Shown here in pieces: positions 24,297-32,763 of a stretch of DNA of 35,326 bases. Below the pieces are notes generated by a model. That model searched no databases, was not told the DNA's origin, and was given only the letters and a program-made list of their open reading frames with translations. Made by a program: the position numbers and the translations under genes. Source of the stretch: an uncultured Nitrosospira sp. (GTDB taxonomy: Bacteria > Nitrospirota > Nitrospiria > Nitrospirales > Nitrospiraceae). Position 1 is the first letter of the stretch. Every line of letters begins with the position of its first letter. Where the stretch lies: NCBI GenBank assembly GCA_900696505.1, contig CAADGJ010000064.1, positions 1 to 35,326 on the forward strand. The letters run 5' to 3'.

Positions 24297-24980
24297 ATGC
24301 GCGTACACACTTTCTTTTCCAGAAGCGGCACAGCGTCAAGAATGATGGCGATCTCGGTCCTCTCGCTGCTCGGGTATTTCGCTCTGCTTCCCTCTACCGC
24401 ACAGGCCAGTCGAACTCTCGTCGTTCCCATTTCTGTCGCAACCTATACCGACACCCAGGTCGGCTTCCCGACGTTCGTGATGAAATGGGACGAGGGGGCT
24501 CAGCCGGATCCCTTAGCATTGCGCTGGGGCCGTAGCCAGGTTCCTGTTCGCGGAACCGGCATGACGTCGATTCAGCACGCGTTCCAGTTTGCTGTCACAC
24601 GTCTGGATGCCTCCATTCGCCCGACAGGAACCCTCTCGCTGTATGCGACATTCACGGGTCCGCTCAGTGAAGAGGGATCAACGGCGGAAGCCGCGTTGGC
24701 GATTGGATTCATCGCTCTGCTCAAGGGTGACCAGCTGAGACGCGACATCACCATCACGGGCACGTTGGAAGGCGATGGTCGGATCGGACAGGTAGATCAA
24801 GTCGCCGAAAAAACAACTGCGGCGGCCAGAGCCGGCTACCACGTGCTGCTCGTACCACGAGGGCAATTTTATGCCCCTCGAGTCAATCGAGTCAGCTTGA
24901 CGCCGGAATCGAACGTCCTCGTCCGAGAAGTAGAGACGATTGAAGAAGCCTATGAGATCATGACGGGGAAGAAACTCTAA
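24297..24980 (+). CDS. Exported Lon-type (S16) serine protease domain without ATPase
   Basis: A 227-residue protein: signal peptide (basic start, then ISVLSLLGYFALLPSTAQA, cleavage near residue 37) followed by a domain like the proteolytic C-terminus of Lon. The Ser-Lys dyad is visible: Ser-128 in EEGSTAEAAL, and Lys-172 in VAEKTTAAARAG, the place of the Lon catalytic Lys. TGTLEGDGRIGQVD between them matches the Lon TGEI...GRVLPIGG segment, and HVLLVPRGQ matches the next strand. There is no AAA+ part, so it must act without ATP in the periplasm. Substrate unknown. The start could also be ATG 24342; neither has a ribosome-binding site. It is convergent with the CHAT protease gene. Confidence 0.75.
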   Translation: MRVHTFFSRSGTASRMMAISVLSLLGYFALLPSTAQASRTLVVPISVATYTDTQVGFPTFVMKWDEGAQPDPLALRWGRSQVPVRGTGMTSIQHAFQFAVTRLDASIRPTGTLSLYATFTGPLSEEGSTAEAALAIGFIALLKGDQLRRDITITGTLEGDGRIGQVDQVAEKTTAAARAGYHVLLVPRGQFYAPRVNRVSLTPESNVLVREVETIEEAYEIMTGKKL

Positions 24981-25057: not shown

Positions 25058-27532
25058 TCACATCCAGTTGTTGATCAACAGGAATGCCGCCCAGTAACTC
25101 GGGTGCGTATGGCCGCGCTGCGAAAGAATCTTTTGCTGTGCCCGCTGCAAGGCCACAGCTTTTGAAATGGCGGGATCCTGCAACTGCCGGTAAAATTCCG
25201 ATACCAGTTCCGTCGTGGTTTCATCATCGGACGTCCACAGACTCGCCAGCGCTGTTCTCGCTCCCGTTTTGACGGCAACCCCGGTCAATCCGAGCGCCGC
25301 ACGATCATCCTCGGCAGCCGTTTCACACGAACTCAGCGTCAGCAGATCCAACGGCTGTTGCCGGTACTGCTGAAGTCCCACCAGCTGGGACAACCGGTCC
25401 ATCGTGATCTTGCCATCATGCGCCAGCACAAACGAATCTCTCGCCTCGGTTCCGACAACCGTATGAGATGCCACATGAACGATCCCCAGGCCCTGGTCCT
25501 TGATCTCCTCTTCCAAGGTCGGCGTAGAGAACTGTTTGTTCATGAGCAGCTTCCCGCCGTACATCGTTCTGATCGCCTGCACTTCGGTCTCCGCGTATCG
25601 CGGCGCGGACTGTCCCTCGACCGATTCAGTCAGCCCCACCGACAGCAAACTTCCCTTGCGGCGTTGAGCTCCATTCATATCGGTCAGCGCCAGACTCGGC
25701 GTGACTGCGACGGCGAGCGAATCGACGAGAAAATGCCGCCCATCGTGGAGCGCTCCCATGGGAATGGTCCTGAGCGATCCGTCGGCTACTACCACGAGCG
25801 TATGGACACCGGCGCCTTGCAAGTCCTGTTGAATGGGTGCAACGAGCCACCCGTGGAGCGTCTGCGCGGAAGACAGGTAATTCTGTGATTGCGAATCCTG
25901 GATCAGCCGCCTGAACGAACGAATTTCTTTCGTCAGCTTTTCTCCCGCCACAGGAACTCTGACTTGTTTGAGTCCGTTGGACGTTTCCAGGAGCAGTTCG
26001 AGCCGGTCCGGAAGGGCGATCGGATAGATCACCGCCGTGCCTGGCGCCAACGCCCCCGCGCCTCGATGACTCGCCACCGTCGCGACACAATCGTCCTGGA
26101 AATAATCCTGTAGCTCGGCCGCCCGCGACACCTCAATCGTTTCCTTGACCTTCACCAGCAACTGGTCATTTTGCTCGGGAGTCTTCGCCGCCGCCGCTCT
26201 CCGCAGCAAGACATCTTCATATTCGACGAACAATGGAGCCACGGATTCGTAGTACGAATGATGCCGTCCCTGATATCCGACGGAATATTCGTAGTGAATC
26301 GGCTTCAACAGCGTCACGGCACGCTGATACGCGGCCAGGGATTCATCTTCCTTGCCCTCCGCCCGCAACAATCTCGCCGTTTGCCACTGCCAGCGGTAGA
26401 GCGATTCCGGCGCATTCACCTTTTGAGCGGCGAACGTGGCTTTTCGCGTATACTCCAGCGCCTCGGGATTGCGATGCTCCTGCTCCCGCAATCCACCCAG
26501 ATAACCCCAGGCATACGATTGCCCGCGCGCATCGCCGATGCGTTCCGCCACTTCACCGGCCGCAGTAAAGGCTTCCGATGATTGGCGCAACAGACCGGAC
26601 GCAGAGCCGGTAGAAGCCACCGCTTCCGTCGCGCGCCCCTTCCCCGCATCTCTCTTCGCTGCCACACCGGATTTCCCCGTTGAGGCGGCAAACAACTCCT
26701 GATACCCAAGGCCAATGTTCAGCAAGCCAGCGGTCTTTGCCTGGCCGTCTCCAAGTGATCGGACATCCGACCAGGCTTGGTCAAGATGGCGGTGCGCTTC
26801 GCCCAATTGTTGATTCTGCAACAAGGCCATGGCGCCATTGATCTGTGCCGTGGCTGCCAGCGCCTGCTGTTTGGTTTCGGTGGCAAGGGCTCGGCTTTCC
26901 GCATAGACGTCGATCGCCTCAGCGAATTGCCGGCGAGCCGTCAGGGCATTACCCAGATCATTTAAAATTCCGGCAACCAGGACAGGTTTTTTCTCCTCCC
27001 GGGCCAGCGTCAGGGCTTTGGTCAAATGTTCGGTCGCAGGTTCGTCTTTTCCGAGGACATGAAAGGTGTTGCCGAGCTGAGCGAGAATCGTTGCGGTGAG
27101 ACCGCGTTCGCCGGCTTGCTCCGACAGTTTCAATGCCGCCTGCAACGTGCCCTGTGCACGGCGGATCTGCCCCTCCTGCTGAAGCGCATGCGCCACGTTG
27201 ATTAAGGCCTGACTTTGCTCTTTGATCTGTCCGGTTTCTTCGTACCCGCGCGCCGCATTCATCCAATGCGTAGCCGCCTGGGCAAACGCGCCTTGCTGAA
27301 ACTGTGTCGTCCCCTGTCGCATTTCTTGCGCCGGCGTGATCGACGACGTGCTAGAGCCGCCCAACAACTCCAGAGCCATCCCGCTAGCAGGCCAGGTGAA
27401 GCTGCTCAAGGCCAGCACTCCCAGGCTCAGTATCGTCAATGGCGACGACAGGGTGCGCGGGCCGGCCGAACCAGTAGCCCCATGGCTCCGCTTCATGCCG
27501 CGGCGAGTGACCATATTACGCATCGTAGGCAT
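25058..27532 (-). CDS. Exported TPR-CHAT caspase-like protease
   Basis: An 824-residue protein. A long basic N-terminus and the hydrophobic ILSLGVLALSSFTWPASGMA form a signal peptide. About ten TPR-type helical repeats fill residues 65-430 (for example AALKLSEQAGERGLTATILAQ). The CHAT domain occupies about 500-824, with His-690 in VHVASH and Cys-736 in TLSSCETA as the catalytic dyad; the residue after His is Thr instead of the usual Gly. CHAT proteases cut after specific residues in partner proteins. The ATG at 27532 has AAGGAGG, 18 bp after the exoprotein stop, so it is cotranscribed with the secretion pair. Its likely target is the exoprotein or its transporter, which is inference. Confidence 0.9.
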   Translation of the reverse strand: MPTMRNMVTRRGMKRSHGATGSAGPRTLSSPLTILSLGVLALSSFTWPASGMALELLGGSSTSSITPAQEMRQGTTQFQQGAFAQAATHWMNAARGYEETGQIKEQSQALINVAHALQQEGQIRRAQGTLQAALKLSEQAGERGLTATILAQLGNTFHVLGKDEPATEHLTKALTLAREEKKPVLVAGILNDLGNALTARRQFAEAIDVYAESRALATETKQQALAATAQINGAMALLQNQQLGEAHRHLDQAWSDVRSLGDGQAKTAGLLNIGLGYQELFAASTGKSGVAAKRDAGKGRATEAVASTGSASGLLRQSSEAFTAAGEVAERIGDARGQSYAWGYLGGLREQEHRNPEALEYTRKATFAAQKVNAPESLYRWQWQTARLLRAEGKEDESLAAYQRAVTLLKPIHYEYSVGYQGRHHSYYESVAPLFVEYEDVLLRRAAAAKTPEQNDQLLVKVKETIEVSRAAELQDYFQDDCVATVASHRGAGALAPGTAVIYPIALPDRLELLLETSNGLKQVRVPVAGEKLTKEIRSFRRLIQDSQSQNYLSSAQTLHGWLVAPIQQDLQGAGVHTLVVVADGSLRTIPMGALHDGRHFLVDSLAVAVTPSLALTDMNGAQRRKGSLLSVGLTESVEGQSAPRYAETEVQAIRTMYGGKLLMNKQFSTPTLEEEIKDQGLGIVHVASHTVVGTEARDSFVLAHDGKITMDRLSQLVGLQQYRQQPLDLLTLSSCETAAEDDRAALGLTGVAVKTGARTALASLWTSDDETTTELVSEFYRQLQDPAISKAVALQRAQQKILSQRGHTHPSYWAAFLLINNWM

Positions 27533-27550
27533 GACGTCCTCCTTGGGCAA

Positions 27551-28828
27551 CTAGCACCCCTGCCATGATTCCATAAGTTGTGCGATCGTCTGACCGTGAA
27601 TGTGGGCTGATGGTGCTGCCGGAGCGCCAGGCTCGAGATCGCCGGCGATCTCCTCCAGTACCACAGGCGCCGCCAGTGACCGGCCGGGCTGCGAGGGCGT
27701 GACGTCGCGTGAAGCTTGCACCAGGCTGCTGAAGGTGCCGTCTTTGCGTGCGGCGCACCGACTGGTCAATAAAGGAGCCGGCGGAGCCGGGGCTTCCTGT
27801 GGAAGCACCATGGCGGCACGATTCAAAAACGCGACAGGTTCGACAGGATTCGTCGGATTGACATTGGCCGCATTTGCGGTAGGGAGAGGCGGAAGGCCGC
27901 CAAGATTCACGCCCACCACTTGGATTTGGGTCACACGTTGCGTGAACGAATTCGTTGTCGTGTTGACCTGCGAACCAGTCGGCACGGTGACATTCGGGCT
28001 CACGTCGATCGAAGCTGGAATGACTCCACCACCACCCGCAGCGATCAGGGTTCCAGGTAACGCTTGGACCTGTCCGTTGCCAGACGCTCCGGAAAAAGGA
28101 TTTCCGACAGCCGGCTGCGCACTCATTTCTCCGCCCGAGCTCGTACTGCCGAGAATGACACGCTGCGCGCTGATTTTCGATCCGTTGATCTGAATGCCTC
28201 CCCCCATCAGGCCAAGCACAGCCCCGGTCTGGAGCACCGTCGAAGAAGATGAGAGGACGATCGAACCATAAGGCCCCTGACCTAGAAATCCGAATGCAGC
28301 CGGTGCACTGGAGGATAAGGTTGAATCCAGGCCCAGAAGGGCGGTGCTGGCAGTGAATCGCCCGCCATCGCTCAAACGTAGTTGCTGAGCGGTGCTGAAA
28401 TAAACAGATCCGGACACGTTCAAGTGGGCCGATGGGCCGAATATGATTCCGGAAGGATTCAGGAAGAACAGGTTCGCGTTGAGCGCTTGCACCGTGCCGT
28501 TGATGTTGGATGGTGATCCACCGATCACTCGGCTGATGACGTTCGACACGCCACCTGGGTTCACGAATGACGCCACATCTCCCGCCCCGACGGAGAACTG
28601 ATTGAAGCTATGAAAAAGATTGGGACCGCCTCCCGGTCTCGTCCCCCCGGTAATGTTGGTCGTATTGCCTGCCGTGCTCAGCGTGGTTCCAAGACCGCCC
28701 GGTCCGCCTGGAGTTGCGACGATGTTGGTGGCCTGTCCATAAGCGATCGACGCGGTAGAGCCCAAGAGCATCAGGAAGGCGAAATATCCACGAACCAACA
28801 GCGGCAATCCTGCGGGGCGACATAGCAT
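27551..28828 (-). CDS. Two-partner-secretion exoprotein, filamentous-haemagglutinin N-terminal domain, compact form
   Basis: A 425-residue secreted protein. Signal peptide (residues 1-31), then the TPS domain (about 33-285) with NxNL-like LNANLFFLNPSGIIFGP (NPSG at 124-127), the motif that the outer-membrane partner recognises. Beyond it only about 140 residues remain, Pro/Asn-rich, then a C-terminal box at 356-383 (Cys-358, TFSSLVQASRDVTPSQPG). This box resembles the conserved Cys-SSL/F-V-R-PP-type ending of cyanobacterial TPS proteins. Usual passengers exceed 1,000 residues, so the beta-helix is nearly missing. The last residue is Cys. The ATG at 28828 has GAGGAG. The partner transporter is upstream and the CHAT protease downstream. 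Confidence 0.9.
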   Translation of the reverse strand: MLCRPAGLPLLVRGYFAFLMLLGSTASIAYGQATNIVATPGGPGGLGTTLSTAGNTTNITGGTRPGGGPNLFHSFNQFSVGAGDVASFVNPGGVSNVISRVIGGSPSNINGTVQALNANLFFLNPSGIIFGPSAHLNVSGSVYFSTAQQLRLSDGGRFTASTALLGLDSTLSSSAPAAFGFLGQGPYGSIVLSSSSTVLQTGAVLGLMGGGIQINGSKISAQRVILGSTSSGGEMSAQPAVGNPFSGASGNGQVQALPGTLIAAGGGGVIPASIDVSPNVTVPTGSQVNTTTNSFTQRVTQIQVVGVNLGGLPPLPTANAANVNPTNPVEPVAFLNRAAMVLPQEAPAPPAPLLTSRCAARKDGTFSSLVQASRDVTPSQPGRSLAAPVVLEEIAGDLEPGAPAAPSAHIHGQTIAQLMESWQGC

Positions 28829-28845
28829 GGTCAATCTCCTCATGT

Positions 28846-28870
28846 GGTAAGAGAGGCCCCCTCTCTTACC
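28846..28870 (-). promoter_or_regulatory. Perfect 11-bp hairpin in the leader of the exoprotein gene
   Basis: GGTAAGAGAGG and CCTCTCTTACC form a perfect 11-bp inverted repeat around a three-base loop. On the minus strand it ends about three to eight bases ahead of the GAGGAG ribosome-binding site of the exoprotein gene. There is no following T-run, so it is not a standard terminator. It may stabilise the exoprotein mRNA against decay or control translation. Confidence 0.65.
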
Positions 28871-29104
28871 TTAAACGACACACAACTTCAACACGCACAC
28901 CCTATCCAGACCCACGAGTGCAAGGGCCAAGACCAGGCCGATCAGCCCTGGACATTCAGCCCTAACAAGGATGCATACGTGGCCTGCGGCACCGCGCACA
29001 AGCAAGGGCAAAAGGCCGTCAACAAGCAGCGGCCATTCACCCTCGAGGACAACATGCTGCATCAGCGAGACGGCAGCGACTCCATAGCATCCGTCCCTCT
29101 CTCG
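28871..29104. other. Gap between transporter and exoprotein genes with two opposed small open frames
   Basis: The 276-bp gap between the two genes is long for an operon. The minus strand has a 63-codon hydrophobic frame (29062-28871) with no ribosome-binding site, ending at the hairpin. The plus strand has a 93-codon frame (28844-29125, GTG start) whose middle has clearly higher third-position GC. Neither product resembles a known family. I do not call either a gene. Confidence 0.35.
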
Positions 29105-30913
29105 CTAAAATGCCTCTACGACTAATTGCAGATGGATGCCGTGATCCTGGAGGTTGTTGCGATCGGTATCGTATCGCTTCAACTGTTTTCCATAATAGAG
29201 TTCGAAATGACTCCCGCGCCAAAAATTCCAGATCACGCCAGCACCAAGACTGGCCAATGTTTTGGGGGGAGTACCGGGAGTCTGGGCAGTGGTTTGCCAG
29301 CCATGGCCGAAATCGAAAAACGGCGCCAGAAAGACGGAGTCCACACCCGCCTTTGTCGTATAGACCGGCACCCGCGCTTCAATCGATGCCATTGCGGCAT
29401 TGTCTCGAATCAGCGTGAACTCGCGATACCCGCGGACGCTATACCGTCCGCCGACGGCAATTTGTTCAAGCGGGAAGAGGTGATCGTTGGACAATTGCAC
29501 CACTCCGCGGCTCACTAACTGCGTCCGCCAAAACGGAAGTTGCCGGATCCACTGGGCTTCGCCCAACCAGGAAAAGAACCGCGCATCCGGCAGGTTCGGA
29601 TCAGCATTGGCGGTCGCCCCCATCGCTCCGATACCGACGGAAAACCGCGACAAAAGGGAAATCACCTGTTCGGCGGAACGTTGGGCATACTCCTGCCCGA
29701 AACGGAGCGCGGTCACACGGAATCTTCCGTTCGGCGCCCCGGTGATGAGCTCAAACGGATTGCTGCCCAACGTGCTCTCATTCCTGGCATGTTCGCCCGT
29801 GAGGGAAAACGCCAGCTCCTGGTCAGCCTTCCTGATCACGGGGTGCCTGACCGAGAGCCCGAAAATCTGAGCTTTGTTTTTGATATCCAATGAATCGAAC
29901 GGCGACTCCTCGACGCCGAAATCAAACCGGCGATACTGCAGTGCGACGGTCGTATCGCGAGGGCCTACCGGGATTTCATATTTAAAGTTGAGCATCGGGT
30001 TGACGCCGGCGGAGCGACCATATTGCAAACTCAGCGTATCGCCGAAACCCAACAGGTTCTGGTGAGCTAAGGTGATGAAGCCTTGTTCCGCACCGACGAC
30101 GGGAGATTGATAGTTGTTGAACTCCAACCAGGCCTTGAGCGGGTTGGCTTCCTTCACCTTCACATTGAGCGTATTTTCTCCAATCGTGGCACCGGGCAAG
30201 AGTTCCGCATTGATGCGTTCGATCCTCGGGTTGGCCTGCATGACGCGCAACCGTTCCTGGAGCGCTTCAACCTGGAGCGGAGGGCCGGCCGCCAGATTGA
30301 CGCGGCTCTGAAAATACGACGGCCGGAACCACTTGGTATCCTCGACGTTGACCTGCGTGATCTTTCCCTCGATGATCTGCATGGTCAGGGTGCCGTCGGC
30401 GACATCCTGCTCCGGGACCACCGCACCGGACGTCAAATAGCCATGGTTGACGTAGTAGTAGGTGAGCGCGAGACGCAACGATTCCAAGTCTTCCGCCGTC
30501 AACTCGCGATTCGTATATGGCGCGGTGATTTCCGAGAGTTGTTGCGCCGTAAAGGCGGTATTGCCGACCAGCCGGATATCCTTGACCATGATCTTGGGTC
30601 CCTTGGCAGCCTGATCGAGCGCACCAGGAGGCGTGGGTGTCGGGAAATCAAGCGCAGGGGGCTGTGCGGGCGGAGGCACGACGGGTAACTGGGGCGGTTT
30701 CGGAGGCAACGGCCCGAGCTGCGAGCCGGTTTGTGAGTGAGCGGGCACGACCAGCGCGCCAAGCAACAGCACAGCCGCCAGACCAGCAACGGTTCCACGC
30801 CATCTACGCAACACATCCCCGCGATTGGATGAACAGCCGGACGCATCCAAACGCGAGTCAGCCGCCCCGGATATTCCTGCTGCCGGCCCCACTGATTTCT
30901 TCACACAAGCCAT
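29105..30913 (-). CDS. Two-partner-secretion outer-membrane transporter (ShlB/FhaC/HecB family)
   Basis: A 602-residue Omp85-superfamily pore that exports the TPS exoprotein. The n-region is unusually long (about 38 residues), then the signal WRGTVAGLAAVLLLGALVVPAHS. A Pro-rich linker (66-98) precedes POTRA 1 (about 107-184, starting IMVKDIRLVGNTAF), POTRA 2 (185-257) and a 16-strand barrel. The barrel has the conserved VRGY motif in RYSVRGYREFTL and ends in the aromatic LQLVVEAF signature. The ATG at 30913 has GGGGAGG upstream; an internal GTG near residue 34 would shorten the n-region. First gene of the secretion-CHAT cluster. Its partner is the compact exoprotein next door. Confidence 0.93.
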   Translation of the reverse strand: MACVKKSVGPAAGISGAADSRLDASGCSSNRGDVLRRWRGTVAGLAAVLLLGALVVPAHSQTGSQLGPLPPKPPQLPVVPPPAQPPALDFPTPTPPGALDQAAKGPKIMVKDIRLVGNTAFTAQQLSEITAPYTNRELTAEDLESLRLALTYYYVNHGYLTSGAVVPEQDVADGTLTMQIIEGKITQVNVEDTKWFRPSYFQSRVNLAAGPPLQVEALQERLRVMQANPRIERINAELLPGATIGENTLNVKVKEANPLKAWLEFNNYQSPVVGAEQGFITLAHQNLLGFGDTLSLQYGRSAGVNPMLNFKYEIPVGPRDTTVALQYRRFDFGVEESPFDSLDIKNKAQIFGLSVRHPVIRKADQELAFSLTGEHARNESTLGSNPFELITGAPNGRFRVTALRFGQEYAQRSAEQVISLLSRFSVGIGAMGATANADPNLPDARFFSWLGEAQWIRQLPFWRTQLVSRGVVQLSNDHLFPLEQIAVGGRYSVRGYREFTLIRDNAAMASIEARVPVYTTKAGVDSVFLAPFFDFGHGWQTTAQTPGTPPKTLASLGAGVIWNFWRGSHFELYYGKQLKRYDTDRNNLQDHGIHLQLVVEAF

Positions 30914-31335: not shown

Positions 31336-32763
31336 CTACGACAAGGGCGCAGCGGCGAATCCCGCGCCGGGCCATAGCATCTCGGCAGGAGTCTCTTCCT
31401 CGAACCGGGCCGTAAAATGTCGAAGGCGAGGAGCCTCGTAAGTCATGACCAACCCTCCGATGGAGTGCCGGCGTTGGTAGAGATCCACCAACGCTTCCGC
31501 CACGAAGGACAGATGCCGGCTGGTATAGACTCGTCGGGGGATCGCCAATCGCACGAGTTCCAATGCCGGGTAGATCGTTTCCTCGGTCGCCGCATCCCGC
31601 TTGCCGAACATGACCGTTCCGATTTCGACGGTGCGAATGCCATAGTCCCGGTACAGCGCCACGGCAAGGGCTTGCGCCGGGAACTGGGATTGTTGCAGAT
31701 GCGGCAGAAATTCCTTCGCATTCACATAGACCGCATGGCCCCCGGTTGGCTTCACGATCGGGACGCCGCCTTCTTCCAGCAGAGCCCCCAGCGCCCGTAC
31801 CTGTCCGATGCGCTAGCGGAGATACTCCTCATCGAGCACTTCCTCGAGCCCCCTCGCCATCGCTTCCAGATCTCGCCCTGCCAGTCCGCCGTAGGTAGGA
31901 AATCCCTCGACGAGGATCAACATGTCGGTCACCGCCTGCGCCCATCGCTCATCATTGAGGGCCAGGAATCCACCGATGTTGACCAGGCCATCCTTTTTGG
32001 CAGACATGAGACAGCCGTCGCCCAGACGGAACAGTTCTCTGGCTACGTCACGAACTGGTCTATCCGCATACCCCGGTTCGCGCTCCCGGATAAAAAAACA
32101 ATTCTCTGCAAACCGGCAGGCATCGAAGAACAACGGGATGCCGTAACGATTCAGCACTTGCCTCGTCGCGCGGATATTAGCCATTGAGACCGGCTGGCCG
32201 CCGGCGCTGTTATTGGTAATGGTGATCATGACAAAGGGGATTCGCGAAGGCCCGACCCGCTTGATGGTCTCCTCGAGTCGAGCCACGTCCATATTGCCCT
32301 TAAACGGCAGTTCGCAATGCGGATCGTATGCCTCTTTGATGACCAGATCCTTCGCCTCCGCCTCCTGGTGCTCGACGTTGGCTCGGGTCGTATCAAAATG
32401 AATGTTGTTCGGCACGCACATGCCTGGTTTGAGAACCGTTGAAAACAACACATGTTCGGCCGCCCGCCCCTGATGCGTGGGAATGACGTAGCGGTACCCG
32501 AACAATCCGCGCACGACCGTTTCGAAGTGATGGTAGTTCTTGCTTCCCGCATACGACTCATCGCCGAGCATCATCCCGGCCCATTGGGAATCACTCATGG
32601 CCGATGTTCCGCTATCCGTCAGCAGATCGATGGCGACACTCTCGGCAGGGACATGGAAGAGGTTATACCCGGCCTCGCGAAGCAACCGGTCACGCTCCTC
32701 GCGGGTGGTGCGCTTGACGGGCTCGACGACTTTGATCCTAAACGGCTCGAATGGGAAGTTCAC
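31336..32763 (-). pseudogene. tnaA: Tryptophanase-family beta-eliminating lyase interrupted by one in-frame TAG
   Basis: PLP enzyme splitting tryptophan to indole, pyruvate and ammonia. The frame is open for 475 codons apart from TAG at codon 317 (31815-31813), where the family has Tyr or His in the pattern EYLx-(Y/H)-RIxQV. Both halves keep full similarity: IPTHQGR, FDTT with Asp-124, PLP Lys-257 in MSAKKDG, YGGLAGRD before the stop, and PTGGHAVYV, FPAQALA, RHFTARF after it. Asp-124, and Ile where tyrosine phenol-lyase has its substrate Arg, point to tryptophanase. GTG start with AGGAGG seven bases upstream. It overlaps the HTH gene by 26 bp. A recent nonsense mutation, readthrough or a sequencing error are the options. 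Confidence 0.85.

What the first reader, a model, noticed from the sequence alone, without database searches (positions are those of the whole stretch)
25058..30913. Two-partner secretion pair linked to an exported CHAT protease
Seen: transporter, compact exoprotein and TPR-CHAT protease in one orientation, with 18 bp between the last two. Known: TPS exoproteins cross the periplasm unfolded, and CHAT enzymes are caspase-like proteases that cut dedicated partners. The CHAT protein has its own signal peptide, so it and the exoprotein would meet in the periplasm. Inference: a secretion system with a dedicated caspase-like processing enzyme, which may cut the exoprotein, gate release or kill on misfolding. 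I know of similar gene neighbours in cyanobacteria, but not of an assigned function.
Basis: partly seen in the sequence, partly recalled or inferred. Interest (0 to 1): 0.78.

Follow-up and report, generated by a model that had tools for sequence, protein, structure and literature searches.

The report
Secretion pair with a caspase-like partner
A two-gene protein secretion system travels, in two bacterial phyla, with an exported caspase-like protein that probably acts on the secreted protein's tail; in the window's own lineage that protein has repeatedly lost its cutting residues yet is still conserved, so it may now work as a binding partner rather than a protease.

Summary
A TpsB transporter, a compact 430-aa TpsA and an exported TPR-CHAT protein lie in one orientation. 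The CHAT start (ATG 27532, perfect ribosome site) is 18 bp after the TpsA stop.

The linkage is real. All three genes sit together in 27 of 29 congeneric genomes; the other two are cut by contig ends. Paralogous copies have other gene orders. Cyanobacteria carry equivalent operons, and one holds two single-frame TpsA-CHAT fusions.

CHAT tracks one TpsA class, marked by a C-terminal module with a cysteine pair (188 of 193 proteins). This resembles the periplasmic disulfide anchor of HMW1/HxuA. In this phylum 67 of 75 such exoproteins have CHAT within 16 kb; none of 8 intact long classical TpsAs does.

The 'dedicated processing protease' reading weakens for this locus. The His/Cys dyad is intact in all 92 linked CHATs outside the window's ortholog group. 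Inside it, 5 of 27 lost a catalytic residue (at least 3-4 events), while the CHAT domain stays under strong purifying selection, also after the loss (omega 0.043).

Best reading: CHAT is a third partner that binds, and ancestrally cuts, the periplasmic TpsA tail; here catalysis has become dispensable. This is a new variant of two-partner secretion. Interaction and cleavage are untested.

The parts
29105..30913 (-). TpsB transporter (POTRA_2 plus ShlB/Omp85 barrel), 602 aa from ATG 30913; the open frame runs up to TTG 31063
   Evidence: Pfam PF08479, PF03865, PF01103; orthologs 67-93% identical in the same place in congeners
27551..28843 (-). compact TpsA exoprotein, 430 aa: signal peptide, TPS domain, linker, C-terminal module
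   Evidence: PF05860 2.3e-33 and TIGR01901; orthologs in all congeners
28127..28690 (-). TPS secretion domain of TpsA (aa 52-239)
   Evidence: beta-rich, pLDDT mostly above 80 for aa 51-150
27653..27781 (-). conserved C-terminal module of TpsA (about aa 355-397, RCAARKDGxFSSLVQAxRDVTPxxPG), with Cys363 at 27755-27757
   Evidence: found in 75 of 92 TpsAs of the phylum and 118 of 125 cyanobacterial TpsAs sampled
27554..27556 (-). C-terminal Cys430 of TpsA, the second of the only two Cys after the signal peptide
27539..27544 (-). ribosome-binding site AAGGAG of the CHAT gene, inside the 18-bp gap
25058..27532 (-). exported TPR-CHAT protein, 824 aa
   Evidence: predicted model pLDDT 77, pTM 0.74
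25073..25870 (-). CHAT domain; catalytic His at 25463-25465 and Cys at 25325-25327
   Evidence: PF12770 9.8e-51; dyad columns; closest folds Craspase TPR-CHAT/Csx29 and separase
24297..24980 (+). convergent neighbour: exported Lon/S16-fold protein, conserved beside the operon in the genus; its link to the system is not shown
   Evidence: PF05362 6.1e-07; orthologs in place in the congeners

Best explanation
This is a two-partner secretion (TPS) system with a third partner. TpsB exports TpsA, whose conserved C-terminal module with a cysteine pair stays in the periplasm as an anchor. The exported TPR-CHAT protein meets that tail in the periplasm: its TPR arm binds the tail and its CHAT domain ancestrally cuts it, which would release or mature the exoprotein as LapG does for CdrA. 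In the window's lineage the exoprotein has shrunk to little more than the TPS domain plus the tail, and CHAT catalysis has become dispensable, so CHAT mainly holds or gates the tail. Shown: gene linkage, the module and its cysteine pair, fusions, predicted export, the dyad conserved elsewhere and eroding here under purifying selection. Inferred: periplasmic retention, the disulfide, binding, cutting and release.
For: Same three genes in all 27 unbroken congeneric loci, and in other gene orders in paralogous loci (L064, L069-L076, L080, L081). The TpsA-to-CHAT gap is most often 18 bp. Cyanobacterial equivalents: TpsA within 8 kb of CHAT in 32 of 44 loci with enough flank, annotated as such on plasmids. 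Two single-frame fusions with the TPS domain near the N terminus and CHAT at the C terminus, each beside a TpsB gene (L199, L200). Census: 67 of 75 module-bearing TpsAs have CHAT within 16 kb, none of 8 intact long module-negative ones. Cys pair in 188 of 193 and no other Cys in most passengers. Review PMC5422565: HMW1/HxuA C-terminal disulfide anchors; periplasmic LapG cuts the CdrA tail. TPS and CHAT distances correlate between pairs within a genome (r 0.37 and 0.48, p about 0.01). Dyad intact in 92 of 92 CHATs outside the window's ortholog group, lost in 5 of 27 inside it; omega 0.043 after the loss.
Against: No binding, cleavage, disulfide or periplasmic retention has been shown. In cyanobacteria nearly every TpsA carries the module, including many with no CHAT within 12 kb, so there it marks a TpsA class, not local linkage. 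In the window's phylum the module and the TPS-domain subfamily cannot be separated. Four module-bearing TpsAs lie far from CHAT in their genomes (G050 twice, G057, G060). Many unlinked CHATs also have signal peptides, so export alone is not telling. The Cys loop spans 65-126 residues, against about ten in HMW1. The tail was predicted with low confidence.
Confidence: 0.5

Rival explanations
1. Dedicated processing protease: CHAT cuts TpsA in the periplasm and the cut is the point of the system, also in this lineage.
For: Operon linkage and fusions; the window copy keeps His and Cys; the dyad is intact in all 92 linked CHATs outside the window's ortholog group; the closest fold is the TPR-CHAT of Craspase, a protease with a dedicated partner.
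Against: Dyad lost in 5 of 27 orthologs, at least 3-4 times, with purifying selection kept. The Gly after the catalytic His is replaced by Thr or Ser throughout the group where read, and the Thr two after the Cys is often Ile.
Confidence: 0.25
2. CHAT is a general exported quality-control or stress factor that only shares regulation with surface-protein genes and does not act on TpsA.
For: Cyanobacteria hold dozens of CHATs, many exported and unlinked. CHASE2 and DUF928 genes also recur beside these loci.
Against: 18-bp spacing and overlapping frames, association with one TpsA class only, fusions, and within-genome distance correlation.
Confidence: 0.12
3. CHAT is an effector carried out by the TPS route, as the fusions suggest, and the stand-alone CHAT uses the TpsA/TpsB pair to reach the cell surface.
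For: In two fusions CHAT is the C-terminal part of a TpsA with its own TpsB.
Against: The stand-alone CHAT has its own signal peptide and no TPS domain; the fusions lack the C-terminal module, so CHAT may simply take the tail's periplasmic place. Dyad loss fits poorly with an enzymatic effector.
Confidence: 0.08
4. CHAT triggers cell death when secretion fails, a caspase-like guard of the TPS machine.
For: Only the general link of CHAT proteins with cell death and defence (background knowledge); a fold match to Csx29.
Against: No defence family matched apart from generic TPR and Lon-like hits; catalytic loss under purifying selection; no toxin-like partner seen.
Confidence: 0.05

Closest known systems
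Two-partner (type Vb) secretion with a third partner: HMW1A/HMW1B/HMW1C, HxuA/HxuB/HxuC
   Same: TpsA and TpsB with a third gene in one operon; C-terminal Cys pair on the exoprotein like the HMW1/HxuA periplasmic anchor (PMC5422565, PMC3983070)
   Different: The third partner is an exported TPR-CHAT protein, not a glycosyltransferase or a receptor. The Cys loop is 65-126 residues rather than about ten. The TpsA here has almost no passenger.
CdrA/LapG and FhaB with DegP, CtpA and SphB1
   Same: A periplasmic protease acts on a TpsA C-terminal tail and controls release or maturation (PMC8263021; PMC5422565)
   Different: Those proteases are of other families, and the review states that maturation protease genes appear not to be part of TPS operons. 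Here the protease-like gene is in the operon, and its catalytic residues are dispensable in this lineage.
Craspase TPR-CHAT (Csx29)
   Same: Same architecture and fold: TPR arm plus C-terminal CHAT with a His/Cys dyad; best structural match (7y85_D, Z 29.6, 564 residues aligned, rmsd 7.0)
   Different: Only about 10% identity; exported; no CRISPR effector neighbour; linked to TPS genes instead.
HetF of Anabaena
   Same: Cyanobacterial CHAT protein with a dedicated substrate, PatU3; its protease activity is reported in PMC12288457
   Different: Works in cell division and heterocyst development, not with a secretion pair. No sequence comparison with HetF was made here.

Membership tests
Two-partner secretion system (type Vb) | TpsA with signal peptide and TPS secretion domain | tested here: met
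   PF05860 2.3e-33, TIGR01901 2.1e-20; hydrophobic N terminus in the sequence
Two-partner secretion system (type Vb) | TpsB with POTRA and ShlB/Omp85 barrel encoded beside TpsA | tested here: met
   PF08479 2.5e-22, PF03865 1.4e-31
Two-partner secretion system (type Vb) | TpsB exports TpsA across the outer membrane | not testable with these tools
   needs a secretion assay
CHAT peptidase family (PF12770) | CHAT domain above the curated cut-off | tested here: met
   173.3 bits against a cut-off of 24
CHAT peptidase family (PF12770) | catalytic His and Cys, with the HG motif | tested here: inconclusive
   The window protein has both residues, but Thr replaces the Gly of HG; 5 of 27 orthologs lost His or Cys
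CHAT peptidase family (PF12770) | proteolytic activity | not testable with these tools
   needs a cleavage assay
Csx29/Craspase | TPR plus CHAT fold | tested here: met
   Z 29.6 to 7y85_D
Csx29/Craspase | type III-E effector (Cas7-11/gRAMP) beside it | tested here: not met
   Neighbours in congeners are TPS, Lon-like, dehydrogenase, NUDIX and histidine kinase genes
HMW1/HxuA-type anchored TpsA | C-terminal Cys pair | tested here: met
   188 of 193 module-bearing TpsAs; C363 and C430 in the window protein
HMW1/HxuA-type anchored TpsA | disulfide-bonded tail retained in the periplasm | not testable with these tools
   needs labelling or fractionation

The most novel reading that the evidence does not exclude
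A caspase-like protease caught turning into a pseudoprotease: in TPS systems of two phyla an exported TPR-CHAT enzyme is the operon-encoded partner that reads the exoprotein's periplasmic tail, and in the window's lineage it has lost catalysis several times while being kept as a non-enzymatic lock on a nearly passenger-less TpsA.
Probability: 0.35. Interest if true: 0.77.

Novelty: new variant of a known kind. Interest (0 to 1): 0.64.

Why it matters
A 2017 review states that proteases maturing TPS exoproteins appear not to be encoded in TPS operons (PMC5422565). Here a protease-fold gene is in the operon across two phyla. That names a third partner for a large, mostly unstudied class of exoproteins, marks a conserved tail as its likely target, and gives a ready-made evolutionary comparison (intact against dyad-lost orthologs) to separate catalytic from non-catalytic roles of CHAT proteins. 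No paper joining CHAT with two-partner secretion, filamentous hemagglutinin or hemolysin activation was found in the open library searched.

Tried and rejected
(1) Module as a tag tied to local CHAT linkage: rejected for cyanobacteria, where nearly all TpsAs carry it whether or not CHAT is near; it holds only as a class marker. (2) Signal peptide as proof of a special role: weak, since unlinked CHATs have one too. (3) Structure of the exoprotein tail: low confidence beyond residue 241 (pLDDT under 50), so no claim. (4) Sequence search of the CHAT domain against solved structures: no significant match; only the fold comparison was informative. (5) Defence-system reading: the PADLOC scan gave only generic TPR and Lon-like hits. 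(6) Promoter and terminator scans of the operon: no excess over shuffles. (7) Literature on the combination: no paper found, so no prior function could be cited. (8) The organism was not identified; that the genus looks like Nitrospira is my impression and was not tested.

Full report
Observation. TpsB carries POTRA_2 and ShlB domains; the 430-aa TpsA is little more than a TPS domain, a linker and a C-terminal stretch; the third gene encodes TPRs plus a CHAT domain (173 bits against a cut-off of 24). A perfect AAGGAG precedes ATG 27532, so CHAT is 824 aa, starts 18 bp after the TpsA stop and has its catalytic Cys at 736. In the 830-aa numbering used by my alignments this Cys is 742 and the His is 696.

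Conservation. In the 61 genomes searched (own genome and its relatives), all 29 members of the genus have this CHAT, and 27 have TpsB, TpsA and CHAT together with the same neighbours; the other two, G009 and G028, are broken by contig ends. Paralogous loci keep the three families together in other arrangements: B-A-CHAT, mostly with an 800-aa exoprotein, and A-A-B-CHAT or A-B-CHAT with exoproteins of about 1000 to 1900 aa. An exported Lon/S16-like gene lies convergently beside the window-type operon throughout the genus.

Other phylum. A scan for the CHAT family brought 80 cyanobacterial loci. Of 44 with at least 5 kb on both sides, 32 have a TpsA and 35 a TpsA or TpsB within 8 kb; CHASE2 (30) and DUF928 (31) genes recur. 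Annotated cyanobacterial plasmids show the same neighbourhood. In two near-complete genomes, Calothrix brevissima NIES-22 and Scytonema sp. NIES-4073, 19 of 53 and 8 of 26 CHAT genes lie within 8 kb of a TPS gene, against 2.6 and 1.2 when positions are randomised. In Calothrix two open frames hold both domains: one of 1884 aa, whose predicted start runs into a glycosyltransferase-like region, and one of 2945 aa with a clear signal peptide. Each lies beside a TpsB gene. For the 2945-aa protein, Pfam's single-protein scan did not report the TPS domain, although the whole-genome search did (1.8e-35) and the N-terminal sequence shows it plainly.

A tail module. All exoproteins next to CHAT that I read end in a shared module, RCAAxxxGxxSSxxxxxRDxxPxxPG in this phylum and CxxxxxSxFxxTGRGGLPPxP in cyanobacteria, although their middles differ. 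A profile found it in 75 of 92 TpsAs of the phylum and 118 of 125 cyanobacterial ones. Of these 193, 188 have one Cys in the module and one in the last 25 residues, 187 have exactly two Cys from the module to the end, and 161 have none between residue 50 and the module, at a median length of 987 aa. The window protein has C363 and C430 only, besides one in the signal peptide. Published HMW1 and HxuA carry a C-terminal disulfide loop that is thought to stay in the periplasm and anchor the protein.

What CHAT tracks. In the phylum, 67 of 75 module-bearing TpsAs have CHAT within 16 kb. Four of the eight exceptions sit on contigs without any CHAT match (G013 three times, G009); four are genuinely apart (G050 twice, G057, G060). 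Intact module-negative TpsAs longer than 900 aa have none within 16 kb (0 of 8); two truncated frames inside CHAT clusters also lack the module. All 34 genomes with a module-bearing TpsA also have a CHAT. These counts are not phylogenetically independent: about 27 of the 75 are one ortholog group. In cyanobacteria the module is nearly universal and cannot discriminate.

Catalysis. Among linked CHATs and window orthologs (120 rows), the only losses of the catalytic His or Cys are in the window's ortholog group: L061 (H to R), L043 and L060 (H to Q, shared), L045 (H to Q), L065 (C to S), that is 5 of 27 against 0 of 92. A tree needs four changes for the four full-length cases, at least three forced by well-supported branches. 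Selection stays strong. CHAT-domain omega in pairs with a dyad-lost member is about 0.03-0.07. On dyad-lost branches synonymous to nonsynonymous counts are 43:4, 45:4, 22:3 and 54:4, similar to their sisters. Between L043 and L060, which share the loss, the last 250 codons give 28:4, omega 0.043. The whole ortholog group, where read, also replaces the Gly after His, and many members replace the Thr after the Cys. L060 carries a one-base deletion in the middle of the gene, which may be an assembly error. The window copy keeps His and Cys, so it may still be active.

Structure. The predicted model (pLDDT 77, pTM 0.74) matches Craspase TPR-CHAT/Csx29 best (7y85_D, Z 29.6, rmsd 7.0 over 564 residues, 10% identity), then also separases and the anti-sigma factor DdvA (8rw5, Z 21.5). 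TPR-only proteins also score highly, so the TPR arm contributes. The TpsA model is confident only in the TPS region.

Mechanism. Shown: linkage, class specificity in this phylum, fusions, predicted export, the Cys-pair tail, dyad conservation elsewhere and erosion here under purifying selection. Inferred: the tail stays in the periplasm, CHAT binds it, and in most systems cuts it, as LapG cuts the CdrA tail and DegP/CtpA trim FhaB. In the window's lineage the kept function does not need cutting, which points to a structural role such as locking or gating the tail. Within-genome correlation of TPS and CHAT distances (r 0.37 with 14 pairs, p 0.011; r 0.48 with 6 pairs, p 0.014) is modest support for pairwise co-evolution.

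Verdict. The processing-protease reading is plausible for the family but weakened for this locus. It is a new variant of a known kind of system; the step from association to mechanism awaits experiment.

Noticed in passing
window 24297-24980 (+): Exported Lon/S16-like protein conserved beside the operon in the genus. In the alignment to a solved Lon domain the position of the catalytic Ser holds Thr while the Lys is kept, so it may be a second protease-fold protein with an altered active site.
   Followed up: partly
window 31813-32763 (-): Beta-eliminating lyase (tryptophanase-like, PF01212) of 316 aa where most congeners have about 460-490 aa; possibly truncated or frameshifted in this genome.
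   Followed up: partly
L199:3839-9493 and L200:1928-10765: Single frames joining a TPS secretion domain to a C-terminal CHAT domain in Calothrix brevissima NIES-22; the fusions lack the usual C-terminal Cys module.
   Followed up: partly
L288-L292 and the matching places: A separate CHAT class of about 1165 aa occurs in nearly every genome of the genus without TPS neighbours.
   Followed up: no
L083, L085, L086 and many of L088-L167: CHASE2 and DUF928 genes recur beside cyanobacterial TPS-CHAT loci (30 and 31 of 44), perhaps further partners; they were not seen beside the window operon.
   Followed up: no
model mb2f2b8524009 against PDB 8rw5/8rot: The transmembrane anti-sigma factor DdvA matches the TPR-CHAT model at 14-16% identity, hinting at another envelope TPR-CHAT-like protein.
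   Followed up: no
L060:10616-13086: The CHAT gene of G020 is split by a one-base deletion in a lineage that has already lost the catalytic His.
   Followed up: partly
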